From the IMG/VR virus record IMGVR_UViG_3300033146_005439, positions 47,383 to 111,382 of that record: a stretch of DNA of 64,000 nt. One strand, 5' to 3'. The position numbers and the translations under genes were made by a program. The notes beneath the pieces are model-generated. The model was not told the origin of the DNA and did no database searches. It saw nothing but the letters and a program-made list of their open reading frames with translations. Within the stretch, counting starts at the first letter, position 1. Each line of letters opens with the position of its first letter. This document shows, piece by piece, positions 10,592 through 55,171 of the stretch. Source of the stretch: a virus.

Positions 10592-10601
10592 AATATACCT
10601 A

Positions 10602-10624
10602 CTTATTAAAAGGTTAGATTAATC
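10602..10624 (-). promoter_or_regulatory. Intergenic CTAACC element, copy 4 (divergent)
   Basis: On the minus strand this reads as TTAATCTAACCTTTTAATAAG, resembling the element upstream of the tail tube and chaperone genes (CTAACC, a short T-rich gap, then TTAAG-like). It straddles the stop of the gene at 10623 and lies about 12 nt before the start of the gene at 9941. It is the weakest of the four copies. Confidence 0.3.
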
Positions 10625-16892: not shown

Positions 16893-16909
16893 TACTATAA
16901 CCTCTTATT

Positions 16910-17413: not shown

Positions 17414-17415
17414 AT

Positions 17416-18399: not shown

Positions 18400-18427
18400 A
18401 ATTATAATCTCCTCTAATAACTAATTT

Positions 18428-19193: not shown

Positions 19194-19850
19194 TTACAAA
19201 TATAAAGGTGTATAAGGCATAGAACAACTACCTTGACCTATATCACCAGAACCACTTTGAGAATTACCTACACTAGATACAACAGCTGTCTGCACTCTAT
19301 CTGCTCTACCTATCTGCCCTGCGGATACACTACCTGAAGTTCCTTCTGAAATGGAACCTCCAAAATTAACACCAACAACACCTTGATCTGGAGGATCACC
19401 TGTAACTGAACCTTCAGAAATACCTCGCAGTACATAATCAGGTAACACAACTTCTGTATCGCCCAAAGTAACATAATTCATCATTGACCAAGTCTCTTGG
19501 CCTGGTTGTCTAGCATCACCCTTAGAAAAACTATAACTAGTAACAAACCATTGCGTAGAACTAGGCCCTAAGTCATCTCCTGTAGTACATCCAGCTGGAA
19601 ATACTCTACAAAACATAGTATTAGCATCAATACAAGTTGTAGTAGGAGTAGTATCGTAAGTTGGTGTATTACCAGAATACAATGTTATATTTATAGTTTC
19701 TGTAGGACTTTTTATCTCTGCTGGATCATAAGGTAACCAATCACCTAACACATAAGCTCTCTGCACATTAGGATTAATTTCCCATGATACTTGAGTAGGA
19801 TGACCTCCTCCCATATCAACTATAGTTCCTGCACCTATTATAACTCCCAT
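19194..19850 (-). CDS. Baseplate/tail structural protein
   Basis: A 218-residue protein beginning MGVIIGAGTIVDMGGGHPTQ. Its central part looks beta-structured (VQRAYVLGDWLPYDP, INITLYSGNTP, TQWFVTSYSFSKGD). The C-terminal 70 residues are low-complexity and rich in Gly, Ser and Val. A good AGAGG ribosome binding site precedes the ATG. It is probably a minor tail or baseplate subunit. No family could be named. Confidence 0.68.
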   Translation of the reverse strand: MGVIIGAGTIVDMGGGHPTQVSWEINPNVQRAYVLGDWLPYDPAEIKSPTETINITLYSGNTPTYDTTPTTTCIDANTMFCRVFPAGCTTGDDLGPSSTQWFVTSYSFSKGDARQPGQETWSMMNYVTLGDTEVVLPDYVLRGISEGSVTGDPPDQGVVGVNFGGSISEGTSGSVSAGQIGRADRVQTAVVSSVGNSQSGSGDIGQGSCSMPYTPLYL

Positions 19851-24235: not shown

Positions 24236-27200
24236 TATATAAACCCCCCAATGCAGATACAGAATAAACATGTGTTAATATACGATTTAATTTAGCTTCT
24301 TGTTCCATAAAACGTGTATTCATTTCTTGAGAAAGACCTGATTTATCCGAACGAAGAACATTTAAATCAGAAATTAAGTCATTTATTTGTTTTTCTAAAT
24401 AGGCAGTATCTAAAGTATGTTTTTCTTGTATATCTGATAATACTGCTATACTAGAGGTATCTTCTATCTTAGTATTTAACATAGTTATATCTTCTGTATG
24501 CCTTACCTTTAAATCAGTTATTTGATTACTTAAATTATCTAACACAGTAGCTAATTGATCATTTTTTTCCGCACCTACTGCTGCACCAACACCTTCTAAG
24601 TTAAGGGAGGTTAATTTATTAACAGCCGCCTCAAAAGAAGATGTATCCACCTTTATAGTTGCCTCAGGTAAATCTACAGGTACTTTAACTCCTGTAACAT
24701 CTACACCAATTTTAGCTTCACCTACATCAACTGAAACTTTCGCATCATTAACATCCACAGGAACTTTAGCATCACCTACATCAACCTTAACTGTAGCATC
24801 ACTTACATCAACAGGCACTTTTGTATCAGAAACATCCACTTTAAATTCTACAGATTTTAATTCTTCTATAGCTTTATTTAATTCACCAATATTATCAATT
24901 GTTATAGAAGTAGTTGGTATATTTAAACTTTTACTATCCAATTCATCAGATAAAGCTAAACCTCCATTCTTAAAATTTTTAGAAACAACCAGTTCCCCTT
25001 TTTCTAAGAAATAATTACCTGTAGAGTTAATCATACCTCCAGTATGCTTATGTCCTTTTACAAAACCGCCTAAAAGATGCTTCTTTAAAAAAGCTTCAGG
25101 TGAATAATCTTTAGTAATAATATTCATAAAAGCATTTTCCTCAGTGCCCGCTTTTATTACAGAAGATTTACTAGAAATACCTGGCGTTTTAAAATAAGAG
25201 GAGCCTATAAAAGAACTAAACTCTTTTCTATCTACATAAAGTTTTCCTGTTTTAGTATCTTTATAAATAGAACCATCTTTAATACGTTGATTTATACCTG
25301 CTGAATCAATGCCTATGTGCTTTAAATAAGAAACGCTTACTGGAAAATACCTTCTATTTCTTCCCCCTGATAAGTCAAAAGTATCTCTTTTTTCAGCTAC
25401 ATTTTTAAACACTGTACCTGCTAATTTATCTTCAAATAAATAACGCATATTAGCAAAAAGATTACTTTTTTCAACTACGTCAGAAGTATTCTTATATTGA
25501 GACATCATGCCTTGTAAAGTCTTAGTACCTTCAACTAAAGATTTCATCATAAGTGCTTTAGTTTTTGGATTCTTTACATCTGCCCAATTCTTAATATTAG
25601 CTACATCAGTATCCCCAAATACAGCAATATTCATATTACCTTTATTAGCTTCTATAAATTTAGTTAACTTAGCTTCATCACCACCAAAACGTAACAATGA
25701 GTCTATATCTTTAAAAAGTTTTCCAGATTTAGTTGTAACATCATACTTAGTATTTTTAGCTCTACTAGGCATAGCTTCTACATCGGCAGAAGCTTTCCCA
25801 AAAATATCTATACCTCCGGACATCTTATACTTATTTAAGTCGTCTTTCCTTAAAGCTTCATAATCAGGACGAGCAGCAGATAATTGTCTCGATCTCAAAA
25901 TTCTACGAGCTTTCATTTCTTTTTTCTGCTGATCAAAAACATTAGCTCTATTAGCTACATGCATATCATAAGAATTAGTATAATAACCTAAATAATTATC
26001 TTTTATCATAGGTGATGCGTTATTTACTTTAACACCGCCACGTAAACCTGTATTACCTACCATTTTTAATAAAGTAGCATCACTTATAGTTTTAAAACCA
26101 GCTTTAGTTATACGTTTTCTTTGACTGTTTAAATCCATAAAACTAGGTGCTGGTGCAAACATTGTTCTATTTGTAGCTCTTGTTACGTCTTCACCACGAT
26201 ATTTCTTTTTATTTCTATAATAATTATCTATTTTATTAGCATCTATACCTTGAGATTTAAAATATTCTGAGATAGTCTGTAACTCTGGTAAAACCATTTC
26301 TTCCCAAGCTCCTTTACTATTCAATTTTTGTATCCCAGGACCAAATAAATTGGTATAAACATGCTTTTTATTTTTTATAGAACCACCTAAAGCGAACTTA
26401 TAAAAGTCTTTTGTTGCATCACCTACATAAGGAACTCCTTTAGGTACTTGTCTATTTATTTTAAATTCTTTTTGAACATTCTTATTTGTTAAAATCTTAA
26501 CAAACATCTTTTTTATTTCATTAGGTGTTTGTGCAGAATACATAGGTTCTTTAATACCTGCTAAATCATGTAGTCTAAATAATTCTGCTAAAGGTTCGTC
26601 CGAAAGTTTAAGTTCATCTGCGCCCATACTTCTATAATTTTTTAAACTTTCCTTAGCATATTCCGTAGCATATTTATCTTTTAAAGCTAAATTTCTCCAG
26701 TATTTATGAAGATCAGGAGCATCTTCTAAAAATTTACGAGAAGCTACATGACCTATTTCATGCACCATAGTAGCTCTTAAAAGTTTATCTTGATCTTGAG
26801 CTATACTACGCATATGACCAGAAAGAACTTTTACATTAGGATTATAAATATTACCCGCAGCTATATCTACTTTAGAACGCCCAGTACGTAAATCTTTATA
26901 AGCTCTGCCTAAGTTACCTTTCTTTTTATTTATAGCACTTAAAGCTGATACATCTAAATCAACATCACCTAAAATATCTTTATACTTTGACATAACAGAC
27001 GATACTGTTTTAGTATAACCAGGTAAAACATCTGCGGGTAATCCTGATGCTCTAGCCATTAAAGAAGCTATAGAACTGCCTCCAGATTTAACATTTGTAC
27101 CAATAGCTCCTATCTCATTAGACAAAGGATTAAAGCCCTTTAAACGAGAAGCTACACCCCCAGATAGAGCTGTTCCAGCTAAAGCACTTAAAATACCTGA

Positions 27201-30200: not shown

Positions 30201-33200
30201 CTTAGCCATAGTAGGTGGTATAATTAACTCACCATTACTAACTCGTATAGTGGCAGTTTTGCCAGAAGAACCTGTATTATTAGTAGCATAACTAGATTTA
30301 GCAATCAATGCTTTTGCTTTATTAGCATATTTAGAAGGTATTACAAAAGAACCTTCAGGCACATCTTGCAAAAGTATAGAATCAGAAGTACCTGTGCCAG
30401 GCCCTTTAACAACACCTCCTTGAGCAAAAGATTGCACGTAGCCTCCAAAAGCTTTATTATCTTTTTTAGTAGCCATCTTATCAACAGCTTCTTTCATTTT
30501 ATCAGCAGCTTCATTCATCTTGTCCGAAGCTTTTTCCATACCAGGTTTAATATAGTCTTCCCTAACAGATTTAGGTTTAGTAGCACCTGCAACTTCTTTA
30601 ATCCCTAAAGATTCTTCTGCAAAATCTTTCATAAAAGTTGATGAAGCTTTTTTCAAACCTCTAAAAGCAAAAAATTCTTTAACTTTACCAAATATACCTT
30701 CGGATTCTGATACAGTTTTAGCAAAATCTTTTAAAGCTTGTCCATATTTCTTAAAACTTTCGGGTAGTTCTTCACCAGTTAAACCTGTTTGCATTTTAGC
30801 TGCAGCATAAGTCCCTATAGCTCCTCCAACTGCTCCGGAACGCATAGACCATTTATCACTAAGGCCCATTTTACGCGCAAATAAAGTTGCTGCACCAGTA
30901 CCTGCAGACATACCTTGTAAAGAACCATAAAAACGAGCTTTTTTATACTCTTGAGCTTTTTGAGCTAATAACTCTTCTTGACGTTTTCCATACTCTCCTG
31001 ATAGTTTATATTTCTTACCTTCGGGTGTAATAGTAGAAGATACTACTTCACCTGCCTTTAAAGCGCGTTCTGATAATTTTTTTAATTCTTGATCAATAGC
31101 TTCTATCTTTTTACTAGTATAATTTCTTTTATATGTAGCAAATACTGCTGTTCCTGCAGCTAAACCGGCCATATTTTTAGAATTAAGTAAAGAACTCTCT
31201 GCTACCTTAGTTTTATTCTCTTTTTGTAGAGCTTCTAAAGTGGCTACTTGTTTATCAAACTCCGGAGTACCTCCCTTACTTCTTAAACCAAACCATTTAC
31301 GTTCATCTGGCATTTTATTACGTAATTCACCTAATAACGTATTAGCATTCATACCGGCAAACGCTCTACTATACATTTCTTTACTAGAATATGATCCTGG
31401 ACCACCAACACTTTTATTGTCTATCATCTTAGCAGCGCCAGCCAAACCTTCTCTAGAAATGAGTCGTTTAGTCAATAAATCTAAAGCTCTATTAGATTTA
31501 ATTAACATCTCAGAATCACCTGTTTTTGCAGCGGTATCTCTTATTTTGGCTACTCTATCTAAAGCGGATACTATTTTACCACTTTCTGTAACAAAGCCCG
31601 GTAATAAAGCAGAAACTATATCATTAGGTGTAAGCATTAAATCATCTAATAAAGTAGAAAGATTACGTACTTCACCTTGTTTATCAAAACGCTCTATTAA
31701 TTTGTCTAATCTATCTACGGTATTAGCTGTATTTTCAGCAGTTTTTGTAGTATCTACTTTTAATTCTTTTAATTCATTACCTGGCCCTGCTACTTCAGTT
31801 AAATACTTCTGAAAATCTTCAGGTTTAACAGCTGTTCCAAAACCTTTAGATACCTTTCTAATACTATCCAAAGCTACTTTAGTTTTATCTATAGCGTAAA
31901 TATTATTTGCTGTACCTTCACGTTTAGCTTCTAAAACCTTTAATTGTTTGGCCATAGCCTCAAACTTAGGATTTTTAATAAGCAATCTTTGCTGAGCAGT
32001 TAATTTAGTTTTATCTTGTATGCCTAAATCTAAATTAGCTAACTCTTTACTTTTTCCTGACATTAAACCAGCAGTTTCTCTAGTTAATTTTAAACGTGAT
32101 TCTGTAACAGCAACATTCTCAGCAGTAGCTCTACTATTAGCTTCCATAGCTTTAGTTAAATCTACAAAAGCAGCTCTATATTGCATTATAATTTGATTAT
32201 TCTTCAAAACATTCTGAAGTTGTACAATCTGATCATATAAACCAGTAGTCATTTTTATAGATTTAGCGTCTATACCATCTAACTTCATTTTTTGAAGACG
32301 TTCTAATAAGAAACGATACTCTTCCATAGGTTTAGCATAATATTTCTTAAAATCAGCTGCCCAACCCTTTTGAAAAGGTGACTTACCAAAAGATTTTTCT
32401 AAAGGATTATAACCTTTTGCACCTTGTAAAATAGTAGAAGTACTTATTTCACTAAAAAAACGTTCTCCTAGATTAAAATTACGCTTAAAATCTTTTGGTG
32501 AAATACCTCGTAATCCAGCCCCCGCTCCTGCCATAAATTCATTTAAAGCACCTATTCTATCAGATAAATCTTTTTCTATTTGTCTAACAGGTAATACAGA
32601 ATCAACGATAGCTTGCATATTACTATCAAACTTATGTGTTTCTACTTTTAAAGTTTTAGTGTTAAAGTAAGTAGCTACCCAATCATAAGTTCCATCAATA
32701 GTCTTTTTATATTCTACTATAGCTTGACGACCTGCCATATTAAATTTCTTAGCTGCATCATCCATAAAAGTTACAATATCACCACTTAACACTTTACCTT
32801 GACGCTTAGCAATACCAGCACTTTCAACATTAGCTGTAGTTAATTCTTTAGTAACATCTAATAAACCAGATTTAGTAGGATAAACACGTTTCATTACTTC
32901 TTGACCTAAAACATCTTGCCAAGAAGCTTTACCTTTCATAGCACCTACTTGAAATTTTGGTTCTATTTTAAGAGCCATCTCATAACCTTTTTGTAGTTCA
33001 GGACTACTTAAAATTCTTGAAATTTCATCAGTAGGTAAACCTTTTAGTGACATACTACTTAAAGTTTTTCTAAAACCTTCATAAGAACCCTTAAGTTTAT
33101 CACTTAATTTTGTTACTTTCTCTTGTAATTTAGAAATATCTTTATCATAAATATCACTTAAAGAATATTTATTTTTCTGTGACATCATATAATTAAGTTC

Positions 33201-39200: not shown

Positions 39201-42200
39201 TCTTTCTCTTAATAAATTAGTCCTATCTAATTTATTACCTGAACGAGCATTATTTATTTCCCCAGAACCAAAACCTATTTGAGCCTCATAGGAACGCATC
39301 AATTTTGTTAAACTCTCAACATCAGTACCTGTATGTAGTTTAAATAACTGAGCATTAACTGCATTATCGAATTTTAAATTAGATAAAGATTCCTTTAAAT
39401 AACCTTCTACTAAACCAGCCATAGGTTTATCTTGTTCTGTTAATTTATCTAGGGCTTCAGCTGCTTTTTGTGCAGCTTCATCTAAAGTTTCTACACCTTC
39501 TATAGATTTAAAAGAAGCTCCCGCTTTAGTAAACATTTCAGTCATCAAAGTATTTACAGCATCTGGACCAGTTAAATTATCAGTATCTACTTTCTTACTA
39601 GCTAAAATATTTATTTTTTCTTTATTAGACAAATAACTTAAATTTTCCGTATAAAAAGGTTTTTGTAGATAATCAAAACCATGTTCTTTTGGAAATTTTT
39701 TAGTATAAGCTTTTGCCATAAATGCTAAAGGTGCTGCACCTTGAGTAGGCTGCATAGCATCATAAGTAAAAACGTCTCTAAAACGAGCTGCAGTGCTATC
39801 AACTTCTTTCGTTAAAAGATCAAAATGACGTTTTATTTCTTGTCTAGCTTCTTTTATGGTAGCAGTATGTATTTCTATTTGATCACCATCATAATCCAAT
39901 TTTTGAGCTTGAGCAATGTATTTCGGTAAAGCATCTGATAAAGCTTTACTTAAAGCATCAATGTATTTTGTAAGCTCATCTGCTTTTTGATTAGTTTCTG
40001 GAGTACCTATAGTTCTAAGTTCTTCTCGTTTAGTAGAAGCCTGTTCCATACGAGCCTTAATACTCTTAAATAAAGCATCAAATTTATTTACATCCATTTC
40101 AGGAACGCCAGGTACTAATAAAGAATCTTCGTTTAAACCTTTAGTTGTTTTTAATAACTTAGCTTTGTAAGGTTGAACAGAAGAAGTTCCTGTAAAAGGA
40201 AATCTTACAGACTCTATATAAGGAGCCAACTCTTTATCAATATAATCCCTAACTTCTGGTTGGGCTGAACCTTCAGCTAAAGACTTCTCTAGTTTTTCAA
40301 CATAAGTTAATAAAGATGTTAAAGTACTTTTTACATCAGAAGATTTTGTAACTTGACCTTTAGTATCAAATTTTTTGGTATAAGAAACCGATAATTTATC
40401 AGCTAATTTCTTTGGAATACCCAATTCATTTTGCTTTAATACTGGAAGTCCTATCTTTTTATAAGAAGCTACTTTCTTTGCATGTTCAGCCCCTAAGCTC
40501 TTTACTAAAGAAACGTCTTTAGTAAAATCAGCTTGACCTAAATCCTTAATTACTCCAGCATATTGTTTATTAATATTATCTAACATAGAACCAAATTTCT
40601 TCATATCAGCTGTTTTATCTACCATAGCATTAGTAGCTTTAGCTAATACAGCAGGAATTTTCTTAGTAAAAAAAGTTTGTGCTACAGCCCCACTTTTTCC
40701 TACAAGTTCTTGTTCTAAAGATTTAAAATATTCTTGTTTAGCTTTTTCTAATTGGGCTAATTTCTTAGTAAGAATTTGGTTCTCATCTTTTTTAAATAAA
40801 GCTACTTCATTAAAATCCATACCCATAGAAGCCTTTATATCTTCTAAAACTTTAAATTGTGCATTAGTACCTTTTTTAGAAGATACTATAGAAGGACCTG
40901 AGGAACCCTTACCTGGTTGATAATCACCTAAAAGTAAAGTTTTTAATTCTGCGGCTGTTCTATCAAGAGGGCCTAATTTATTTTTAGCTGATATTTTATT
41001 ATTTACAAAAGCCTCTTTTAAAGCTGCGACATACTCTTTTTGAGATGCTGTACCTACTCCCTGTAACCCAGCAGCATTATATTTTTTAATACTTTCAGGT
41101 AAAAGACCTTTTTCCGAAGAAGCATTCTGCTCTGCTACTTTGAATAATTGTTCTATATAAGTTTTCTTAGAAGACTCATCAGTATTTTTTAATTTACTTT
41201 GAAGATTACCCCCAAAATATTTTAAAATAGTCTTTTTATCATTCTCATTTAATAAAGATAAGTCTTTATTTTGATAAGCACTTAAAGACCTAGCAGAAGT
41301 TAATACATTTTGAAGTGCACGACCAGTACCTGTTATACCATAACCACCGGCTACATTAGGATCTGCGAAAGGCTGTCTAGCTATAGAACTAGGAACATAA
41401 AAATCTTCTTTAACATTACGATTTGCTGTAGGTAATTTAGTTTTAAAAGCAGTAGGAAATTTATCTGTATCAAAAACGGACCCTAACATTGAATTAGCAG
41501 CACCTTTTTCAAAAGTGCCAAAAGAGCCTTCAAAAGGTTTAATATCTTTTAAACTTACCGTATTTAGTTCTTTTAAAAATTGTTCGCCATAATCTTTATT
41601 AGAACTTATTAGATAAGTTAAAATGTTTTCATAGGCTTCAGCTTGTTTTGCATCATAAGCAGCGTTTATCTGCTTTAACATGTTTGAATCCGGCCCAAAA
41701 ATTGATTGATAAGCAGCATAAGCAGGTAGATTTAATTTTAAACCTTTTGCTCCTGAGGCTATATCTCCTTTAGACCATTCTTGAAATTGTTTTGCATCCT
41801 CTATGATCTGAACAAATTTAGGACCCACTAAACTTTTATGTTTATTCCCTAACTCATCTATAACATCTACATAAAAACTAGAGTCACTTTCTAACTTAAC
41901 TAAAGCATCTATAAATTCTTTATTTTCTGCAGCTTTATCACCATACATCTTTTCTATAGCTTTACGTATAGCTGCTTCAGATTTACCAGTGCCTGCATAA
42001 CCTAATGTAGCAGCATAAGAGCTTAAAGTTCCTTTTTTAGATGTAGGACCTAACAACTTTTTATAATCAATTTTATCCTTTATTACAGTAGTACCAGTCT
42101 TACTAGTTGAAGCTAAATTACCTGTGATCATTTCTAAAGCTTCTGTTTGTAAACCACGTTTAGCTGCACCAAAAGAACTTATTCTTATATCTATAGGTTT

Positions 42201-46640: not shown

Positions 46641-46661
46641 TTTTATTTTCTCCCAAAATAA

Positions 46662-47684
46662 TTATCTTCTTTTTGATACAGTGCGTTTTTTTATATCAGC
46701 ACGATCTTTAATTACTTGTGCCTCACGAGGTTTATCATATTCTATATCTTGATATAATTCATTAGACTGTGTAATAATAACCTCTTCTGCATCAAAAGCT
46801 GATAAAGGTCCCTTACCTTTAGCTTTATTACTACGTGCTATAGAAGCTTCATTACTTAATTCTTTATAATATTCCTCCATAAATTTATCTAATAATTCAT
46901 CATCTTCTATCACATCATCTGAAGGCCTTTGATCAGGCATCATATTATAAACATTGTCATAAAAATTAGACCAATAAACTAAATTTAATTGATCTGTAGT
47001 ATATTCAGAAGTTGCTCTATTAAACAAACATTCTGATGTTTTCATACTAGTTGTATATCTTATTCTCCATAAGGTGCTACGCGCTAAAAAACGTATTATA
47101 CTAGTATCTAAACCATTTAATAAAGTTATAAAAGTTGATAATGCTGTATTTTTTAATGTGGAAGGAGATGCCTGCATATAAGCAGTGTAAGTTGGCCATA
47201 ATAAATTACCAGTCATATCAAATAAACTAGCCCAACACATAAATTGGTTCTTTATCTCTTCAGCTTTAGATTCCGCCGACATCATTAATTTAGAATGTTT
47301 TTTATAAATAATAGCATCTATCTCTGATTGTAAATTAGCTATTACTATTTTTATTCTTTCTTGATTAGCCCGCACCTTTAAAGTTTTAGATAATAATACT
47401 TGTTGAGCTTCTAATTTACCACGTAGTTTATTTAAAGCATCTGTGTCTTCTTCAGTAAAAACACCTCTTTCCTCTAACAACTTTTCAAATTCTTGCAAAG
47501 GTAATAAACCTTCTTTTAATGCTTCTTGATAAGCATTATCATAAATTAAATTTGCTTGTTGTTTTACCTCTAATCTAGGGTAAGTTACTACTATAAAATC
47601 TTGCCTATCTTCTACAAATAAATATTCTTTCCCAGAAGAAATTCTACTAAGATAATTATCTATCTCTTCATGACTTAAAATCAT
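46662..47684 (-). CDS. Tail assembly chaperone candidate 2
   Basis: A 340-residue, highly helical and charged protein directly before the tape measure gene. It is paralogous to the gene at 47774: AYQEALKEGLLPLQEFEKLL and EERGVF match AYTKSLVEGI and MRRGII, and MCWASLFDMTGNLLWPTYTA matches LTSCIVVDADGNRVWNSFDE. The C-terminal half is extended and ends in a basic tail (KKRTVSKRR). Position and helical content fit a tape-measure-binding chaperone (the G/GT role), but no slippery frameshift links the pair; each has its own start (AGAGG site here). A terminator-like hairpin lies between them. Confidence 0.7.
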   Translation of the reverse strand: MILSHEEIDNYLSRISSGKEYLFVEDRQDFIVVTYPRLEVKQQANLIYDNAYQEALKEGLLPLQEFEKLLEERGVFTEEDTDALNKLRGKLEAQQVLLSKTLKVRANQERIKIVIANLQSEIDAIIYKKHSKLMMSAESKAEEIKNQFMCWASLFDMTGNLLWPTYTAYMQASPSTLKNTALSTFITLLNGLDTSIIRFLARSTLWRIRYTTSMKTSECLFNRATSEYTTDQLNLVYWSNFYDNVYNMMPDQRPSDDVIEDDELLDKFMEEYYKELSNEASIARSNKAKGKGPLSAFDAEEVIITQSNELYQDIEYDKPREAQVIKDRADIKKRTVSKRR

Positions 47685-47712
47685 TACTAACCTCTAAAGG
47701 TGCCGTTCCTTA

Positions 47713-47736
47713 TAATAAAAGTGGTTAGTTAAATAA
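47713..47736 (-). promoter_or_regulatory. Intergenic CTAACC element, copy 1
   Basis: On the minus strand the core is TTATTTAACTAACC, followed by a short T-rich gap and TATTA. It lies between the two chaperone genes and overlaps the hairpin there. TTGGTT and TATTAT are 17 nt apart across it, so it could act as a host-type promoter for the second chaperone and the tape measure. Nearly the same core is found at 48853 and 52162. Confidence 0.4.
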
Positions 47737-47748
47737 CCAACCACTTTT
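47717..47748 (-). terminator. Hairpin between chaperone genes
   Basis: Arms at 47717-47730 and 47735-47748 pair over 14 bp with one G-U wobble and a 4-nt loop. In the minus-strand transcript the 3' arm ends in UUUU and runs on into AUUAUAA. It could lower expression of the second chaperone and the tape measure relative to the first chaperone. It is weaker than the terminator at 50403 because the U-tract is short. Confidence 0.6.
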
Positions 47749-47773
47749 ACTATAATTTTTTATAATTTATATA

Positions 47774-48514
47774 TTATTTTTTAGTAGAACGTTTAGCTGT
47801 AGTTTTCCTTGTGGTTTTCTTACGTGTTCTTTTAACAGGTTTTTTCACTTCAGTTTTTTCTTCGGCGGCTTCTTCTGACATTTCTGCCATAACATTAGCC
47901 AAAGTCTCTTGTTCTATTTCACGCATAACTATAGCTTCAGGTGTTTGTTCCATAAAATCACTTTCTAAACCTTGTAAATAAAGCATTACTTCAAACCTAG
48001 CTTTTTGAGCTAAACCTTGTTCTTTTTCTACAAGATACTCATCAAAACTATTCCATACTCTATTACCATCAGCATCTACAACAATACAAGAAGTTAAAAA
48101 TTCTAACCTAGTATCATCTGCTATCTGCTCACAAGTATTTGCTAAGGGAGCCTGCAAACGTTGATTCCATTGAAATAATTCATCTCTAGCAGCAGCCACT
48201 TCTAAAGCCAAAGTCTGTTTTTCTTCAGTTGTTGATGCAGCAGCTAAAGCGTCTATTTTAACATTTAAAATTTCCGCTAATTCATTAGATCTCTGCTCAA
48301 ATTCTGGCCCAATGATACCACGACGCATTAAGATATCTGTCATTTCTGCTGTAGTAGTAATACCTTCTACTAAACTTTTAGTATAAGCTTTACTATACTC
48401 CCAATCAGCCCCTCTAATATCCTCAGCTGTAGGAGCTACTATATAGTAAGTAGCATCGCCATCTATACCTAAAAAAGACCTTAAACCTTCTGTATTAAAT
48501 TCTTGTTCACTCAT
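47774..48514 (-). CDS. Tail assembly chaperone candidate 1
   Basis: A 246-residue, mostly helical acidic protein with a strongly basic C-terminal tail (KKPVKRTRKKTTRKTTAKRS). It shares with the next gene the blocks A-Y-x3-L-x-E-G, R-R-G-I and D-x-x-G-N-x-x-W-x-x-[FY]. It lies between the tail tube region and the tape measure, the usual place of the first tail assembly chaperone. The histone-like tail is unusual for this role and could bind nucleic acid or the acidic partner. The ribosome binding site is purine-rich (AAGG...GGTG). Confidence 0.68.
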   Translation of the reverse strand: MSEQEFNTEGLRSFLGIDGDATYYIVAPTAEDIRGADWEYSKAYTKSLVEGITTTAEMTDILMRRGIIGPEFEQRSNELAEILNVKIDALAAASTTEEKQTLALEVAAARDELFQWNQRLQAPLANTCEQIADDTRLEFLTSCIVVDADGNRVWNSFDEYLVEKEQGLAQKARFEVMLYLQGLESDFMEQTPEAIVMREIEQETLANVMAEMSEEAAEEKTEVKKPVKRTRKKTTRKTTAKRSTKK

Positions 48515-48529
48515 AATATCACCTTTTCC

Positions 48530-48775
48530 TTATTTTTTATGTTTAATCTCAATAATTTCCTCAGTTTTAGGCACATACTTAATATCATAATCTGATAAAT
48601 TAGCATTAATTGTACGAATACAATCATTACCTACACGTAAGATTTTACTACGTAAAGCTTTAAATGTCATGGGATCTGAGCATGCAATCTGAGTATAATC
48701 GAGAACCGATTCGAACATTTTGGTTACTTCTTTTTTAACCAAACCTTCTAATTTCTTCCTATGTTTATCAACCAT
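48530..48775 (-). CDS. Small hypothetical tail-region protein
   Basis: An 81-residue protein starting MVDKHRKKLEGLVKKEVTKM. A longer frame begins at 48829, but the ATG at 48775 lies 5 nt behind a perfect GGAGG, which decides the start. It is helical with basic ends; FKALRSKILRVGNDCIRTIN is the most distinctive segment. It is located between the tail tube/endonuclease region and chaperone 1. It may be a tail completion or assembly factor, but no family is identified. Confidence 0.75.
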   Translation of the reverse strand: MVDKHRKKLEGLVKKEVTKMFESVLDYTQIACSDPMTFKALRSKILRVGNDCIRTINANLSDYDIKYVPKTEEIIEIKHKK

Positions 48776-48852
48776 AAAAACCTCCATTGTTGATAATTTA
48801 CCTTTAAATCCTGATTTACCTTTAATCAAGAAACCTTAACCTTTACATCTTA

Positions 48853-48874
48853 CTTAATACAGGGTTAGTTAAAT
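48853..48874 (-). promoter_or_regulatory. Intergenic CTAACC element, copy 2
   Basis: On the minus strand the core is ATTTAACTAACC followed by CTGTATTAAG. It lies 5 bp behind the stop of the broken endonuclease gene and about 80 bp before the start at 48775. The flanking bases also match copy 3 behind the second endonuclease (a shared CATCT about 10 bp further). Confidence 0.45.
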
Positions 48875-48879
48875 CTAAA

Positions 48880-50331
48880 TTAATTATAAATATACTTTAT
48901 TTTTCCACAATCCCAAATTCTATTATAACCATTATTTAAACAATTTTGATACTCAGTTAAATTAGGATCATAATTAATAAATAACTTTTTTAATTTTTTA
49001 TGTTGAAAATTACGTTTATGTAGTAACTCAAACTGATTACTAAAATAATAATAACTAGGAGCTACTTCATGCACAAAATCAAAACCATTATTAATATATA
49101 CATTACCAGAAAAATACCTTTTATCTGCAAAAGTTATTATGGGTTTATTATTTCTTGACTTTAAAAAAAACTTAAAAAGTTTACTAAAAGAACCATACAC
49201 CAAAGTATGCTTTCTATTAACAAAACGTACTAAATTATAATAAGTATCATACTCGAACAAAACCATTAAAGACATCAAAATATCTTTATAAAAAAGACCT
49301 ATATATTTGCCTGGAGCAAATCCTTGTATGTGGTTAGCTTCTAAAAATTTTTTAGCTAATACAATAGGTACTTCTTGGATAGTGCATTGTCTAGAACCAA
49401 TTTTATATTTATAAATATTACATTGAGCTAACAACATAGACTCAAGTATAGCATATTTTAACAGATACTCTGGCTCAAAAATTGTAATTAATCTATAATC
49501 TTTATTACTACATTTAAAATATTTATCTTTATGATAATTCTTTGGTTGAGGATATCTATGTAAAGCTTGCTCTGAGTGCCAATACAAACCACAGTATTCT
49601 ATGGCTAAATTAAAATCAGGTAATACTAAGTCTAATTCATAGGGTTTTATTAAAGACCTGTCACTTTGTCTATACTTTATGTTATTATCCTTAAATAAGG
49701 AGGCTAACACATTTTCAGGTTTAAATATTTTAGTAGTACATCTAGGACAACCTTAGCCTCGCAAATGTTTGTCTGGTGATTGTTTAAACATACCGTGTTT
49801 AGGGCAACGGATACTTACGGGTAATTTACTTTTAATATAAATAGTATCCGAATAAATATACTTATTAGCATACACCTTATGTGCCAGCACAACGAAGTCT
49901 TCTGTTGATAAAGTATGTTTAAATGTATTTTTCTCTCTAGCACAAAGCGGGCATCCAGCGCCCCTTAAATGATTATTAGGGGTTTGTTTAAAAACACCAT
50001 GCTTAGAACAAATTATATCCACTTTAGTCATACAATTAATATAATTAACTTTATTATAATTATATTTATTACTATGTATTTTTTGAGCTTGTTGAATAAA
50101 AGTAGTGACATCTTTAGATTTATGATTAATATTTTTCAAACTACCACATATAGGACAACCTTGCCCCCTCATATGTGCATCAGGAGTTTGTAAAAAGATA
50201 CCATGTAGAGGACAAACTATTTCTACTTTAGTTTTTGTATTTATAAAAACTACCTTATCATAATTATAAAAATTAGAATGTTTAAGTATAGATCTTTTTA
50301 AAAAATCCGATTTAGTTAATTTCTTAGGCAT
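48880..50331 (-). pseudogene. Homing endonuclease with zinc-ribbon repeats, broken by one TAA
   Basis: Two open frames in the same reading frame are separated only by TAA at 49753-49755. The first part has three repeats of the kind CPLHGIFLQTPDAHMRGQGCPIC; the stop sits at the x of HLRG-x-GCPRC in repeat 3, where the others have Gln or Ala, so a CAA-to-TAA change is likely. The second part holds a VSR-like PD-(D/E)XK nuclease (ELDLVLPDFNLAIEYCGLYW with WHS) and a C-terminal domain that looks GNAT-like (FLEANHIQGF, then YFSGNVYINNGF). The whole resembles the intact gene at 52185. The upstream frame has a GGAG site; a GTG at 49710 could restart translation of the nuclease part, but without a strong site. 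Confidence 0.82.
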
Positions 50332-50358
50332 AATATATTCTCCACAAAAATTTAAAAA

Positions 50359-50379
50359 CTATATCATATAATGATATAG
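50359..50379. promoter_or_regulatory. Inverted repeat over the endonuclease promoter
   Basis: A perfect 8-bp inverted repeat (CTATATCA, 5-nt loop, TGATATAG) overlaps the putative -10 box of the broken endonuclease. It could be an operator, or a hairpin at the start of the transcript, where it is followed by TTTTT. Confidence 0.4.
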
Positions 50380-50401
50380 CACTAAACATTTAAAAAGTCA
50401 A
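50373..50401 (-). promoter_or_regulatory. Sigma70-like promoter of the broken endonuclease
   Basis: TTGACT (50396-50401), a 17-nt spacer and TATATC (50373-50378), with TG one base before the -10 (extended -10). It lies just after the terminator of the tail tube gene. The bases TTGACTTTTTAAAT are identical to those of the promoter before the second endonuclease. Confidence 0.6.
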
Positions 50402-50402
50402 C

Positions 50403-50432
50403 AAAAAAACCCCATGGTTAAAAACCATGGGG
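50403..50432 (-). terminator. Rho-independent terminator after the tail tube gene
   Basis: A perfect 10-bp stem (CCCCATGGTT with AACCATGGGG, 3-nt loop) is followed on the minus strand by seven T. It is 40 bp behind the tail tube stop and is the strongest terminator in the window, suiting a highly expressed virion gene. Confidence 0.88.
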
Positions 50433-50472
50433 CTTAAGCGATTGATTCGTACCTTATACTAAAACTATTAGG

Positions 50473-52062
50473 TTAACCTACACGTCTAACCTTATTACCA
50501 TTTGTAACATTACCAATAGACACGTCGCCCTTAACTACATAAAGATCATTAGTAGATCTAAATGAGAAAGTCTGTGTAGCATTAGCACCCATATCTAAAG
50601 TCATACCTTCATCCGTAATCTTAAGATGCTCAACAATAACAGTCTTAAGTGGATATTCAGTATCCCCAGCAGCATAAGTTCCCATAACACCATCATGCCA
50701 ATAATTCTGACCTATTAATTTAGAACCAGCCGCTACTTTACGGGCAGAACCTGTACCACCAGCTTCCTCATCTGTTTGAGCATAAACTTTAACTATAAGT
50801 TTAAGATCTTCAGAAGTCATAAGATCAGCAAGATCTAAATCTTCTAAAGTATTAGCATCAAATTCAGCTAATTTATTAGCAACCTTAGCCCAGTTCTCTA
50901 AGTCGCCAGCAGTAGAATCTACAGATACTGTAATAGGAATAGGCATGGTAAGAGGTCTATCATAAGGAGCTAAATGCCCAAGCTCAGATAGAGGCTCACG
51001 AGTAAGGTCACAACTAATGGTACAACCAGTTAAACGCCAAGCAATATCATAAGCTGTGTCTGTTTCAGAAATTATATGAACTTCCACTTGACCCTGACGA
51101 AGAGCACCAATAAAATCAGGCCTATCAGTATCATGTAAAATTTCAAAATAAGTATTATGAGCACCAGTACCATAAGCATTAGCAGCATAAATAATTTCTA
51201 AACGATCATCTGTAGCAAATGTATTATTTGTTGGAAAATAAACACGGTGTTCTGTTCCGTTATCATGATATACAAAAGTATCAGCCGCAGCAGCTGAACC
51301 AGCAACAACTTCAATAGTTTTAGCAGTATTAGCACTTACATCATATACAGTTATACCAGGAGCACCATTCTCATCTTTTCTTAAGAAACCTAAACCCGAA
51401 GATAATACAGCTACATCATCCCCAGCGCCTAAAGAAAGAAGAACAGAACCCGCAGTTAAATCTGCAGAACTTAACTTAAATGAGTCTTGGTTAACAAAAC
51501 GACCATCATTTAATAACCACATTTTGTTATCAGTTTCAGCACCATAGTTCTCAGTTGCATTAGCACCCGAAGAATAAGCAAATTCAAGACTATTAATATA
51601 GACTTTGTCAAGAAATACTGTCTGATCAATATTATTAGCTAAAGATCCGATAGAGCACTCTTCCTGAACGGGAGCCCATAAACTAACGCCGGGCAAGTTA
51701 CCACAGGTAACAGCGAAGTCAGCCAAACAAGCACCATGTAGAAAAGTTCCTACAGGACTCATAGCGCTATCTACAACTTCAAGGTTAGCATTATTACCTG
51801 AAGCTGTCGTATCCATAGCACGTTTCTCAGGAAGAACCTGTGCTAATGTAGCAAGTGTTTTAACATCACCAAAATCATTGGTATTTAACGTTACAGCCAC
51901 ACTAGGAACATCATCAACAACGTCAATAATATCAAGGTGGCCCAATTCGAAAATATCTTCACTGGTAAAAGTAGTTGTAGAACCAAATGACTGGACTCTA
52001 TAGAGTACCTCGCCATTACACCACACACTTTGTGATGCATAAATTATTCTATTTCTAGCCAT
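50473..52062 (-). CDS. Major tail tube protein candidate with duplicated domain
   Basis: A 529-residue protein with more even codon use than its neighbours, an AAGGAG site and a strong terminator, as expected of an abundant virion protein. It looks all-beta. An internal duplication is visible: EDIFELGHLDIIDVVDDVPS then VAVTLNT near residues 35-60, and EPLSELGHLAPYDRPLTMPI then ITVSVDS near 355-385. Doubled tube domains are known in trimeric tail tube proteins such as that of T5. The place between the neck genes and the chaperones supports tail tube. Alternatives are another abundant tail protein; a sheath is less likely because no second tube gene follows. Confidence 0.68.
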   Translation of the reverse strand: MARNRIIYASQSVWCNGEVLYRVQSFGSTTTFTSEDIFELGHLDIIDVVDDVPSVAVTLNTNDFGDVKTLATLAQVLPEKRAMDTTASGNNANLEVVDSAMSPVGTFLHGACLADFAVTCGNLPGVSLWAPVQEECSIGSLANNIDQTVFLDKVYINSLEFAYSSGANATENYGAETDNKMWLLNDGRFVNQDSFKLSSADLTAGSVLLSLGAGDDVAVLSSGLGFLRKDENGAPGITVYDVSANTAKTIEVVAGSAAAADTFVYHDNGTEHRVYFPTNNTFATDDRLEIIYAANAYGTGAHNTYFEILHDTDRPDFIGALRQGQVEVHIISETDTAYDIAWRLTGCTISCDLTREPLSELGHLAPYDRPLTMPIPITVSVDSTAGDLENWAKVANKLAEFDANTLEDLDLADLMTSEDLKLIVKVYAQTDEEAGGTGSARKVAAGSKLIGQNYWHDGVMGTYAAGDTEYPLKTVIVEHLKITDEGMTLDMGANATQTFSFRSTNDLYVVKGDVSIGNVTNGNKVRRVG

Positions 52063-52161
52063 AATTTTTTCTCCTTAAAAATTAATTAAAATTTAAATAG
52101 GTTGGTATATTTTTTAGGCCTTTTCCACGACAAGTAAATTTATCGTAATTTCATCTCTTAT

Positions 52162-52184
52162 CTTAATAAAGGTTAGTTAAATAA
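52162..52184 (-). promoter_or_regulatory. Intergenic CTAACC element, copy 3
   Basis: On the minus strand this reads TTATTTAACTAACC then TTTATTAAG. It begins directly behind the stop codon of the intact endonuclease and lies about 100 bp before the tail tube start. It shares nearly all core bases with copies 1 and 2. Confidence 0.45.
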
Positions 52185-53600
52185 TTATCTATATTTTTTT
52201 ACATATTTTAAATTACCGCAATCCCAAATAATGTTATAACCCTGACCTAATCTATATTCTTGCTCAGTTAATTTAGTATTAATAGAAATAAGTTGTTTTC
52301 TTAAATTATACCTATAAATACGTTTAGTGTTAGTAGTAAAGTACCAATAGTTTGGAACTGTAGCTTTATCATAATTAAAACCTAATACCTCATATAATTT
52401 ACCAGAAGACCATCTTAAATCAGCATAAGATATTAAATAATTACAAATATAATTCTTTTCAAAATACTTTAATAATTTAGAAGCTATACCTATAATACTA
52501 AAACATTGTTTAGAACAAAAACGATGTAATTCATAAGTATTATTATACTGCTTAGAATAACCTTTCACTAAAGAAGGCCTAGCAAAAGTCATAACAGCTA
52601 CTAGATAACCTTCATAAAAAGCCCCTAATTTTATAGAAGCTCCTGCACCATAACCTTGAAGATGATTTTCTTCACAAAAAAGTCTAGCAGTAGTAGTAGA
52701 TATTTCTTTGATAACACATTTTCTAGCATATAATTTAATTAATAAATTAGAATTAATTAAAGAAATTAATCTAGATTTACAAATATCCTTTTTAGTAAGC
52801 CATTCATCTTCAAAAATAGTTATTAAAGTAATATCTTTTTTTAAACAAGCATCATACTTATTCCTATGATAATATTTATCTTTACCATTTTTTACACTAT
52901 GCCAAAATAGTCCATTATATTCTATAGCTATCTTTAGCTCAGGCAAATAAATATCTAATTCCTTTGGTTCTATAATGGTTCTATCATTATAAATAATAGT
53001 ACTTTTATAAATACTTTCTATAAAAAACCTTAATTCTAATTCTGAACGTGAAATTCCAGTTAAAGAACATACAGGGCATCTAACATTCTTAGAATTAAAA
53101 TTATCCCAAGAAATTTTAAATAAATGATTATTAGGACAAACACATTCTAAAAGTTGTTTATTATTAAAATAAGTAGTTGTTAATAAAGAGTACCCTTCTT
53201 TTTTAAAAACCTCTTTTATTTCAATAATAGATTTCTTTTTTCTACCAGAACACTCTGGACAACGATAGCCAGTACTCCAATTATTCCAAGATATAGTAAA
53301 TGTATGATTATTAGGACATTGTACTTTTAATAGACTACTACTATTAATATAAGATGTACTAATTAAAGTATAACCTTCTTTTTCAAAAGATTGTGATACT
53401 TGTTCAAAAGTTAAAGGACTGTTTCCAGCACATTTAGCACATCTAATTCCTCTACGCCAATGATCCATACGCATGGAGCCCTTATGACCTTTTGGGCAAA
53501 GATATTTAAATTTTTTTGTTTTGAAATCATAAGATAAACAGGTATAATTATCTATTAAAAGTTCTTTATTAATTTTAGATATAGTAAGTCTAGGGGGCAT
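52185..53600 (-). CDS. Homing endonuclease (zinc-ribbon repeats, VSR-like nuclease, GNAT-like C-terminus)
   Basis: A 471-residue mobile gene. Three repeats of the kind CPNNHTFTISWNNWSTGYRC then PEC (residues 30-185) are zinc ribbons likely to bind DNA. A VSR/PD-(D/E)XK-type nuclease follows: IEPKELDIYLPELKIAIEYN, then GLFWHS, then TLITIFEDEW. The C-terminal 180 residues (ENHLQGYGAGASIKLGAFYE, then LRWSSGKLYEVLGF) look like a GNAT-type fold often joined to such phage nucleases. It has its own promoter and AAGGAG site. It is inserted between the tail terminator and tail tube genes and is probably a selfish element that spreads by cutting phages that lack it. Confidence 0.85.
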   Translation of the reverse strand: MPPRLTISKINKELLIDNYTCLSYDFKTKKFKYLCPKGHKGSMRMDHWRRGIRCAKCAGNSPLTFEQVSQSFEKEGYTLISTSYINSSSLLKVQCPNNHTFTISWNNWSTGYRCPECSGRKKKSIIEIKEVFKKEGYSLLTTTYFNNKQLLECVCPNNHLFKISWDNFNSKNVRCPVCSLTGISRSELELRFFIESIYKSTIIYNDRTIIEPKELDIYLPELKIAIEYNGLFWHSVKNGKDKYYHRNKYDACLKKDITLITIFEDEWLTKKDICKSRLISLINSNLLIKLYARKCVIKEISTTTARLFCEENHLQGYGAGASIKLGAFYEGYLVAVMTFARPSLVKGYSKQYNNTYELHRFCSKQCFSIIGIASKLLKYFEKNYICNYLISYADLRWSSGKLYEVLGFNYDKATVPNYWYFTTNTKRIYRYNLRKQLISINTKLTEQEYRLGQGYNIIWDCGNLKYVKKYR

Positions 53601-53631
53601 AAAAACTCCTTATTATAATTGTATTTAATAA

Positions 53632-53660
53632 ATTATAATAAGATTTATTTAAAAAGTCAA
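53632..53660 (-). promoter_or_regulatory. Sigma70-like promoter of the intact endonuclease
   Basis: TTGACT (53655-53660), a 17-nt spacer and a perfect TATAAT (53632-53637), ending about 30 nt before the ATG at 53600. The predicted transcript would include the AAGGAG site. It is the best host-type promoter seen in the window and shares its upstream half with the promoter of the broken copy. Confidence 0.75.
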
Positions 53661-53666
53661 TACTAT

Positions 53667-54527
53667 TTAAGCATAACTTCGCAGATCACAAGTTATTTTA
53701 GCTCTATAAGCATTTAAATCAGATAACATAACTTTATCCATGCCCCGCGACATAGATAAGGGTAAACTTATATTTCTATGTGATACATTTTCAAACATTA
53801 AAGCACTAGAACCACTAATTGTTGCTCTACTAAATAAAGTTTCATCTTTATTCATATTATACCTACGTCCATAAAAAGTACCATCATAATCTAATACAGT
53901 GCCTTCAGGTAATTCATATAAAGGACAACTTTTTAAATATAAACCATCATACAAAACCTCTACAATATCATTTCTTTCTGCCGGGGAAGAAGCAAAAATA
54001 TGTAAAGTCATTTTACGATCTATTTGTTTACCACTACCAAGTTGATATCCTTTTTTATCAGTACCACTTATATCCAATACTACTACAGGAGGATCTGCAG
54101 CGGTAATAGCGCTCCATTCATCTACTAAACTAACATAATTCCAATAATAATCAATCATAACAGGTTTAACATATCTAGAAGTAATAATTCTACCATCTAT
54201 ATAATCTATCATGTACCGTGTATCATCTATAACATTACCATTCTGATCATAAACTTTAACCCTGTTACTTTGTTCAGGAGTTCCTGAATAAGTAGGCGTA
54301 TTAACTAAACAATTATCAAAATCACCATCAAAATAAACTAAACCTCTTCCTCTATCAAAGGGGGCTGGTTCTAAAACATTATCTATCTCATAAACACTTG
54401 TGTTACCTTCAGATAGTTCTTCTATATAAACTAATTTTTCTTGTTCTTGCTTCTCGATAAAAGCTTTTAAAACAACATCTTTTAAATATAAATAAACACT
54501 ATCATCTTCATGTCTTAATCTATACAT
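53667..54527 (-). CDS. Tail terminator / tail completion protein candidate
   Basis: A 286-residue protein. The N-terminal half has a beta-rich part with DTRYMIDYIDGRIITSRYVK. The C-terminal half contains KMTLHIFASSPAERNDIVEV then LYDGLYLKSCPLYELPEG, the helix-strand pattern of tail terminator proteins that cap the tube. The start overlaps the previous gene as TAATG. It is the last neck gene before the tube, which fits the role. Fold assignment by eye is moderate. Confidence 0.6.
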   Translation of the reverse strand: MYRLRHEDDSVYLYLKDVVLKAFIEKQEQEKLVYIEELSEGNTSVYEIDNVLEPAPFDRGRGLVYFDGDFDNCLVNTPTYSGTPEQSNRVKVYDQNGNVIDDTRYMIDYIDGRIITSRYVKPVMIDYYWNYVSLVDEWSAITAADPPVVVLDISGTDKKGYQLGSGKQIDRKMTLHIFASSPAERNDIVEVLYDGLYLKSCPLYELPEGTVLDYDGTFYGRRYNMNKDETLFSRATISGSSALMFENVSHRNISLPLSMSRGMDKVMLSDLNAYRAKITCDLRSYA

Positions 54528-55171
54528 TATATTCCCCTAATATCTAAATAAGTAAGTGCGTTATTTATACCTACACTTATCCAAGAATCTATATTAGCAT
54601 TTACATAATTCTCTAAACCTTCAAACACATTTAATGGAGGCATATTTGAAAAAGGAAAAAATACTAATTTTTTATCTAAAATTTCTTGTGCTATTTGTGA
54701 TAATTCACTTTTAATGTTTAATAATCTAAAACGTCTACTTGCTGGTAAATCTGAAGAAATAACTCCAGGTAAAGACCTAAAACGCCTTTTTACTTTATCA
54801 TCTAAACCTTTAGATTTTAATATCACATTTAAATCTTTTTCTGGTAATTCTAAATAATTACCAACAACACCTTCAGTTATAAATTTTAAAATAACTAAAT
54901 CATCACTAAAATCAAAAGTATCTTCATTAGGTATTTCTAATTGTACCTGAGAAGTATCTGATATAAATTGAAACTTAGTTAAACGTTCTATAAAACTATC
55001 ATAAAAAAATTCAGGATTAGCTAAACTATCCTTTTCTATAGTTACACCTAATAATAAATCTTCATAAAGATTGGAAGCTTCCTCTATAATATCTGGTATA
55101 TGTTTATTAAATTCTTCTGAAATAAAATGTTCTAAATTATATTCTATTTTTTTAACTACTTTTTTAGACAT
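54527..55171 (-). CDS. Neck protein candidate (HK97 gp10-like position)
   Basis: A 214-residue protein beginning MSKKVVKKIEYNLEHFISEE with long amphipathic helices and a central SLPGVISSDLPASRRFRLLN segment. It lies between the head-closure protein and the tail terminator candidate, the place of a neck (HK97 gp10-type) protein. The ATG overlaps the end of the previous gene by 8 bp and has no strong ribosome binding site, so it is probably translated by coupling. No signature motif fixes the family. Confidence 0.55.
   Translation of the reverse strand: MSKKVVKKIEYNLEHFISEEFNKHIPDIIEEASNLYEDLLLGVTIEKDSLANPEFFYDSFIERLTKFQFISDTSQVQLEIPNEDTFDFSDDLVILKFITEGVVGNYLELPEKDLNVILKSKGLDDKVKRRFRSLPGVISSDLPASRRFRLLNIKSELSQIAQEILDKKLVFFPFSNMPPLNVFEGLENYVNANIDSWISVGINNALTYLDIRGI

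What the first reader, a model, noticed from the sequence alone, without database searches (positions are those of the whole stretch)
47713..52184. Recurrent intergenic element TTTAACTAACC...TTA upstream of virion genes
Three strong copies (47713, 48853, 52162) and one weaker copy (10602) lie in intergenic gaps on the minus strand, each before a structural gene or operon: chaperone 2 plus tape measure, the small gene plus chaperone 1, the tail tube, and the gene at 9941. I saw no copies within genes. It may be a promoter read by a phage RNA polymerase, possibly the one in the tape measure or another, or a preferred insertion site of the endonucleases (two copies lie right behind them, one is empty).
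Basis: partly seen in the sequence, partly recalled or inferred. Interest (0 to 1): 0.62.

Follow-up and report, generated by a model that had tools for sequence, protein, structure and literature searches.

The report
A new phage gene-start (promoter) signal
The short repeated sequence is real and is best read as a promoter (a "start copying here" signal) used by an undescribed family of long-tailed bacterial viruses to switch on tail, head and some other genes; it is not a landing site for the neighbouring selfish endonuclease genes.

Summary
TTTAACTAACC occurs exactly three times in the 111,382-bp viral record, all on the minus strand and in the 2.7% of the genome that is non-coding. The weak copy at 10602 would be chance-level on mismatches alone, but is position-conserved in two relatives.

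In about 45 relatives found through the tail-tube protein, the same element recurs: TAATWAACTAACC, 10-11 AT-rich bases, then TAG plus purines. A matrix trained only on relatives ranks the window's copies 3 and 1 highest in its genome (25-29 bits; shuffled maximum 15.9). Sites are sense-oriented (46:3). In one relative they also precede beta-clamp, PhoH and glycosyltransferase genes.

Two tests show a cis-acting signal. First, in 12 relatives lacking an intergenic copy the element lies inside the gene before the tube, and rare codons CTA ACC are frozen there (one has CTG). Second, several divergent gaps, with little or no room for another promoter, hold a copy aimed at the rightward gene.

I conclude: a clade-specific phage promoter, not sigma-70 type. 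The endonuclease-target reading is rejected.

The parts
52153..52183 (-). Copy 3: TATTTAACTAACCTTTATTAAGATAAGAGAT, upstream of the tail tube gene (box 52171-52181)
   Evidence: 25-29 bits with a matrix trained on relatives only, best or second best in the genome; about 31 of 40 relatives have an element before the tube
47705..47735 (-). Copy 1: TATTTAACTAACCACTTTTATTATAAGGAAC, before chaperone 2 + tape measure (box 47723-47733); also one arm of the palindrome AAAAGTGGTTGGTTATTTAACTAACCACTTTT
   Evidence: 25-27 bits; sequence
48845..48875 (-). Copy 2: GATTTAACTAACCCTGTATTAAGTAAGATGT, before the small gene + chaperone 1 (box 48863-48873)
   Evidence: 15.6-16.3 bits, no better than the best shuffled score of 15.9, but exact box; G017 has AATTAACTGACTATATAATAGTAGG at the same place
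10594..10624 (-). Copy 4 (weak): GATTAATCTAACCTTTTAATAAGTAGGTATA, before the 216-aa gene 9941-10591
   Evidence: 17.5-18.2 bits; element at the same place in G009 (101690) and G017 (about 157440)
24591..24621 (-). Element-like stretch inside the 3' end of the tape measure gene (encodes NKLTSLNLEG), before the 674-aa gene; not claimed
   Evidence: 19-20 bits but similar coding repeats occur in G017; ambiguous
50473..52062 (-).
   Evidence: used to find 49 relatives; no PHROGs or Pfam match
52099..52126 (-). Remnant of the conserved tube leader: GGAAAAGGCC (52117-52126) and ACCAACCT (52099-52106)
   Evidence: alignment by eye; structured, covarying version in relatives
50407..50435 (-). Intrinsic terminator behind the tail tube gene
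   Evidence: 13-bp stem plus T run
50373..50401 (-). Sigma-70-like promoter of the endonuclease at 49753-50331 (TTGACT-17-TATATC)
   Evidence: sequence, by eye
53632..53660 (-). Sigma-70-like promoter of the endonuclease at 52185-53600 (TTGACT-17-TATAAT, 11/12)
52185..53600 (-). Homing endonuclease gene just upstream of copy 3
   Evidence: phrog_559 and phrog_3339
48880..50331 (-). Homing endonuclease split into two ORFs, just upstream of copy 2
   Evidence: phrog_3339, phrog_559 and DUF723
39882..39896 (-). DYDGD RNA-polymerase signature (residues 2249-2253) inside the 7470-aa tape measure protein
   Evidence: region found in 30 of 40 relatives' records

Best explanation
The element is a promoter specific to this phage clade. 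It has a 12-13-nt recognition box (TAATWAACTAACC; ATTTAACTAACC in the window), 10-11 AT-rich base pairs that probably melt, and a TAG+purine stretch where RNA most likely starts. It stands at the head of operons (tail tube; small gene + chaperone 1; chaperone 2 + tape measure; the gene at 9941). In relatives it also precedes portal-like, other head-region and, in one genome, replication genes. It works beside ordinary sigma-70-like promoters that drive the homing endonucleases and some replication genes. Shown: a conserved, sense-oriented cis element under nucleic-acid selection, with positions kept between genomes. Inferred: that it starts transcription, where the start lies, and that a phage-encoded factor (a phage RNA polymerase, or host polymerase with a phage subunit) recognises it.
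For: Leave-genome-out matrix: G009 has 11 sites of 17 bits or more against 0.5 for permuted matrices, mostly intergenic and 25-140 nt before a gene. Sense:antisense 46:3 in relatives (the matrix was trained partly on these loci). G009's one minus-strand site precedes one of only five minus ORFs, with its own Shine-Dalgarno sequence. Divergent gaps: G009 15527-15620 (a site about 30 nt from the divergent start codon, 15.9 bits), G017 95806-95902 and G000 1543-1674 each hold an element aimed at the plus gene, with little or no room for another promoter upstream. Codon freezing: all 12 relatives without an intergenic copy encode NKLT with CTA/CTG ACC (usage of CTA and ACC 12% each), while 5 of 7 with an intergenic copy do not (Fisher p about 0.002 by hand). 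Position-conserved sites before p57323 in three genomes and before the small gene in two. Box 2 resolves to AT-rich then TAG-R at 10-11 nt in 39 of 48 sites.
Against: No transcript data. The second half also reads as a small CTCT...AGAG hairpin with marginal covariation (4 of 2000 half-swaps in the first set; only z 1.2-2.1 in a cleaner set), which an RNA element would also show. The divergent-gap copies in G000 and G017 are degenerate matches. Many genes in G017 and in the replication region lack the element.
Confidence: 0.8

Rival explanations
1. An RNA-level element in the 5' leader: single-stranded AAUWAACUAACC followed by a small hairpin (nut-like antitermination, processing or stability site).
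For: Second half can pair as CTCT...AGAG; half-swap test 4 of 2000 with G-U allowed; always sense; codon freezing fits equally.
Against: Covariation falls to z 1.2-2.1 in a cleaner set and is not seen for Watson-Crick pairs alone. Most of the window's copies fold to nothing. In divergent gaps the element begins about 30 nt (G009) or about 11 nt (G017) from the divergent start codon, leaving little or no room for a promoter upstream of it.
Confidence: 0.12
2. A preferred insertion site, or a carried flank, of the homing endonucleases.
For: Two window copies lie 4-7 nt behind endonuclease stop codons.
Against: Most relatives with the element have no endonuclease there. In L160 and L055 the endonuclease lies between element and tube. 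In G017 an element stands at copy 2's place without an endonuclease. The endonucleases have their own sigma-70-like promoters.
Confidence: 0.03
3. A transcription terminator of a phage polymerase (P23-45 has a 26-nt terminator motif for its virion polymerase).
For: Copy 1 lies in a long palindrome behind chaperone 1; elements often follow a stop codon.
Against: In 12 or more relatives it lies inside the upstream gene, well before its stop codon, where termination would cut off the coding sequence. It also stands in divergent gaps that need no terminator.
Confidence: 0.04

Closest known systems
Promoters and RNA polymerases of Thermus phage P23-45 (tail-tape-fused virion RNAP gp96, non-virion RNAP gp64; PMC10770324)
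   Same: Giant tape measure protein carrying a DxDGD two-barrel RNAP signature; short phage-specific promoter motifs before phage genes.
   Different: There the tape-fused enzyme reads an AT-rich motif at pre-early genes and late genes use host RNAP; here the element stands before structural genes and some others. The P23-45 motif letters were not available for comparison.
Single-subunit phage promoters (T7/T3/SP6 class)
   Same: Compact, start-site-spanning motif ending in TA(T)AG with purines after it (from memory).
   Different: Spacing varies by 1-2 nt; the box is 14-21 nt upstream of the putative start; no T7-like RNA polymerase was found in the 30 replication-half proteins and the tape measure scanned with Pfam.
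N4 virion RNAP hairpin promoters
   Same: Inverted repeat next to the putative start (from memory).
   Different: Repeat weak and absent in several window copies; marginal covariation.
Sigma-70 promoters
   Same: AT-rich -10-like stretch.
   Different: No -35 at 16-18 nt; alignment does not recover TATAAT.

Membership tests
Sigma-70 host promoter | TTGACA-like and TATAAT-like hexamers 16-18 nt apart | tested here: not met
   Motif has one 12-13-nt box 10-11 nt from TAG; no fixed TATAAT. Real sigma-70-like sites stand elsewhere in the window.
P23-45-type tape-fused virion RNAP promoter | RNAP signature fused to the tape measure protein | tested here: met
   DYDGD in the 7470-aa protein, DxDGD in the G009 and G017 homologues; homologous region in 30 of 40 records. 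Polymerase fold not shown.
P23-45-type tape-fused virion RNAP promoter | Motif restricted to pre-early genes | tested here: not met
   Sites before tube, portal-like, PhoH, beta clamp and glycosyltransferase genes.
N4-type hairpin promoter | Covarying inverted repeat at fixed distance from the start | tested here: inconclusive
   Half-swap tests strong in one set and weak in another.
Homing-endonuclease target | Intact site in empty alleles, interrupted by the insertion | tested here: not met
   Element intact beside insertions, on either side of them, and common without any.
Intrinsic terminator | GC-rich stem followed by a T run | tested here: not met
   None of the copies is listed by the terminator scan of 46600-54600; copy 1's palindrome is A/T-rich.
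Phage promoter in general | Transcripts start at it | not testable with these tools
   Needs 5'-end mapping.
Known Rfam RNA | Match to a curated covariance model | tested here: not met
   None at gathering scores; only chance-level hits in the tube leader.

The most novel reading that the evidence does not exclude
The element is the promoter of the tape-measure-fused RNA polymerase itself (or a derivative freed after infection), recognised partly as an extruded CTCT...AGAG DNA hairpin, so that in this clade one virion polymerase drives structural-gene transcription rather than only pre-early genes.
Probability: 0.15. Interest if true: 0.8.

Novelty: new variant of a known kind. Interest (0 to 1): 0.52.

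Why it matters
It gives an uncultivated clade of very long-tailed phages, whose tape measure carries an RNA polymerase signature, a concrete promoter sequence. That makes the question of which polymerase transcribes the late genes directly testable in vitro. The set of sites also shows a promoter moving between a gap and the neighbouring coding sequence while freezing rare codons, and it gives a handle for mapping operons in metagenomic phage genomes without RNA data.

Tried and rejected
Mismatch searching with the 11-mer: no signal beyond chance. Rfam: nothing. Hairpin as the core of the element: first test encouraging, repeat with a cleaner set weak, so demoted. The codon test on rows chosen for having the element was biased, so it was repeated on every homologue found by protein motif. 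Tape-measure 3'-end hits (window 24591 and G017) look like coding repeats and were not counted. Literature search for the sequence or this clade found nothing; the "moraphages" (PMC12619734) are sheath-bearing and reported without RNA polymerase genes, so they are not this group. Bacterial genomes: no match to a 21-mer consensus. Tail-tube homologue in named phages: none.
Full report
WHAT WAS CHECKED. The window is bases 47383-111382 of a 111,382-bp IMG/VR virus record, here G000. TTTAACTAACC occurs exactly three times in the whole record, on the minus strand only. All three places lie in gaps between genes, although gaps make up only 2.7% of the record. Comparison with relatives removes that selection problem.

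RELATIVES. The tail tube protein brought in 49 loci from viral contigs, and no named phage. Over all 8-mers, without choosing a motif, the intergenic words most enriched against coding sequence in about 41 non-redundant records are Shine-Dalgarno words, then ACCAACCTG, then ACTAACCT and AACTAACC. Listing them shows a common element 130-350 nt upstream of the tube gene in many loci. A degenerate version of the element (AACTAACCTCT, gap, AATAGA) occurs in only 21 stretches of 2.9 million viral contigs, at least 15 of them in contigs already found through the tube, and a 21-mer consensus occurs in no contig of 84,980 bacterial and archaeal genomes. It is therefore specific to this clade.

HELD-OUT TEST. 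A 31-column matrix built from 28 sites of relatives, with none from G000, scores G000's copy 3 and copy 1 at 25-29 bits. The best score in six shuffles of the genome was 15.9. The weak copy at 10602 scores about 18 and copy 2 about 16. In G009 (189 kb), with its own sites left out of training, 11 sites reach 17 bits against a mean of 0.5 for matrices with permuted core columns; in G017 (228 kb) the numbers are 4 and 0.35. Most sites are intergenic, in sense, and 25-140 nt before a start codon. In the relatives' loci the sense:antisense count is 46:3, with the caution that the matrix was trained partly on those loci.

CONSENSUS. Aligning 48 sites on the box and letting the rest slide, the second half resolves as 10-11 A/T-rich bases followed by TAG and purines, in 39 of 48 sites. 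The element reads TAATWAACTAACC - N10-11 (AT-rich) - TAG-R. In the window the box is TATTTAACTAACC or GATTTAACTAACC at copies 1-3 and GATTAATCTAACC at copy 4.

POSITIONS ARE CONSERVED. G000, G009 and G017 are syntenic. Before the gene p57323 (window 9941-10591) all three carry an element: G000 TTAATCTAACCTTTTAATAAGTAGG, G017 AATTAATCTAACTACGATTTAATATAGG, G009 TAATAAAGTAACCTAATTATATATAGG. Copy 2 has a counterpart in G017, behind a terminator-like hairpin that follows the tube gene. Copy 1 has no counterpart in G009 or G017.

NUCLEIC-ACID SELECTION INSIDE A GENE. In many relatives the element is not in the gap but inside the 3' part of the gene before the tube, where the protein reads NKLTSLFNRT. 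To avoid choosing rows by the element, every homologue was collected by a protein motif further upstream. The 12 relatives without an intergenic element all have CTA ACC (one CTG ACC); CTA and ACC are each used about 12% of the time for their residue. Of the 7 with an intergenic element only 2 keep CTA ACC; the others have CTA ACT, TTA ACT, TTA GAA, GAT GAA or a different sequence. By hand this gives Fisher p about 0.002, not corrected for relatedness. Flanking codons vary at background level. The element is therefore selected as nucleic acid, and it has moved between the two places.

PROMOTER RATHER THAN RNA ELEMENT OR TERMINATOR. Divergent gaps decide most. G009 15527-15620 holds CAATAAACTAACTAGTAAATATATGAG about 30 nt after the start codon of the leftward gene, pointing to the rightward gene; G017 95806-95902 and G000 1543-1674 hold degenerate versions in the same sense, the G017 one about 11 nt from the leftward start codon. 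There is little or no room upstream of them for another promoter, particularly in G009 and G017. The only strong minus-strand site in G009 precedes one of its five minus-strand ORFs, which has its own Shine-Dalgarno sequence. A terminator inside the upstream gene would cut that gene off. The alternative of an RNA box plus hairpin was tested: the half-swap test is significant in one set (4 of 2000) and weak in a cleaner one (z 1.2-2.1 with G-U pairs, not seen with Watson-Crick pairs alone), so it stays a minor rival.

ENDONUCLEASES. The two endonuclease genes have their own promoters (TTGACT-17-TATAAT at 53632-53660; TTGACT-17-TATATC at 50373-50401, by eye). A strong terminator follows the tube gene (50407-50435). 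In L160 an endonuclease lies between element and tube, and L055 shows the end of one just before the tube leader with the element about 1.7 kb upstream. Most relatives have no endonuclease there. The element is thus part of the phage backbone. My inference is that insertion of an endonuclease, plus the terminator, makes separate promoters for the downstream genes useful.

WHAT IT DRIVES. In relatives it precedes a small gene plus a portal-like protein (weak PHROGs match), a DUF1360 protein, a PhoH-like protein, other head-region genes, beta clamp and a glycosyltransferase. It is therefore not strictly late. In G000 no site at or above 15 bits stands before the replication genes at 5-38 kb on their strand; the one plus-strand hit there (10586) is antisense.

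WHO READS IT. Not shown. The 7470-aa tape measure protein has DYDGD, the catalytic signature of two-barrel RNA polymerases, but no Pfam or PDB sequence match there. The homologous region is in 30 of 40 records examined, and several of the others are short fragments. P23-45 is the precedent for such a fusion, where the fused enzyme reads pre-early genes, a second enzyme reads early and some middle genes, and host RNAP reads late genes (PMC10770324). A stand-alone two-barrel polymerase is present only in G017 and G013. No sigma factor was recognised by Pfam among 30 of G000's replication-half proteins. Host RNAP with an unrecognised phage factor and a phage RNAP are about equally likely. I put the tape-fused enzyme as reader at roughly 0.2-0.3, and the full novel case (that enzyme plus a hairpin) at 0.15.

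A SECOND CONSERVED FEATURE. Between promoter and tube gene, 22 relatives share a structured leader: AGGnAAAGG, a covarying stem, an inner hairpin with loop GCCTC, then ACCAACCTGA. Paired cells are 73% against 62% in shuffles (0 of 500), and the covariation score is 0.41 against at most 0.21 for slid partners. The structure was drawn from one of the sequences, which flatters the slid comparison. It matches no Rfam family. G000 keeps only GGAAAAGGCC and ACCAACCT. The loop CCTC could pair with GAGG of the Shine-Dalgarno sequence; this is an inference.

LIMITS. All records are metagenomic, many are fragments, and there are no transcripts. Gene boundaries are from a mechanical ORF caller.

Noticed in passing
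L013-L055, about 130 to 40 nt upstream of the tail tube ATG; remnant at window 52099-52126: Conserved structured RNA leader of the tube gene with strong covariation (stem of 7 pairs, inner hairpin with loop GCCTC, closing AGG...CCT), not in Rfam; lost or reduced in the window's subclade.
   Followed up: partly
Same leader: The invariant loop CCTC is complementary to GAGG in the Shine-Dalgarno sequence of the relatives that have it; a loop-SD pseudoknot controlling tube translation is possible.
   Followed up: no
window 24228-46640: 7470-aa tape measure protein with an RNA polymerase signature (LDYDGDQIEIHTA); homologues of 7000-8650 aa in relatives, a P23-45-like fusion in an uncultivated clade.
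   Followed up: partly
L190:3334-6591 (G017) and G013:113126-116329: Stand-alone 1085-1180-aa two-barrel RNA polymerase candidate (DFDGD) in two of the larger relatives only.
   Followed up: partly
window 48880-50331: One homing endonuclease split into two ORFs (zinc-finger half and catalytic half); perhaps decayed.
   Followed up: no
L029, L035, L037, L040, L043, L045, L052, L053 near the start of the tube gene: Tube gene interrupted by what looks like a group I intron (ACAGTC...GACTGGGT-type core, by eye).
   Followed up: no
G000 15725-18943 (outside the window): DNA polymerase A gene carrying an intein with a LAGLIDADG domain.
   Followed up: no
G000 1-1359 and 29970-30818 (outside the window): Phage-encoded DnaK-like (by tblastn to G017 and by eye) and DnaJ (Pfam) proteins.
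   Followed up: no
L088 (G009 19426-19466) and L097 (G010 29849-29885): Before the PhoH-like gene the box occurs as a perfect palindrome, one copy on each strand.
   Followed up: no
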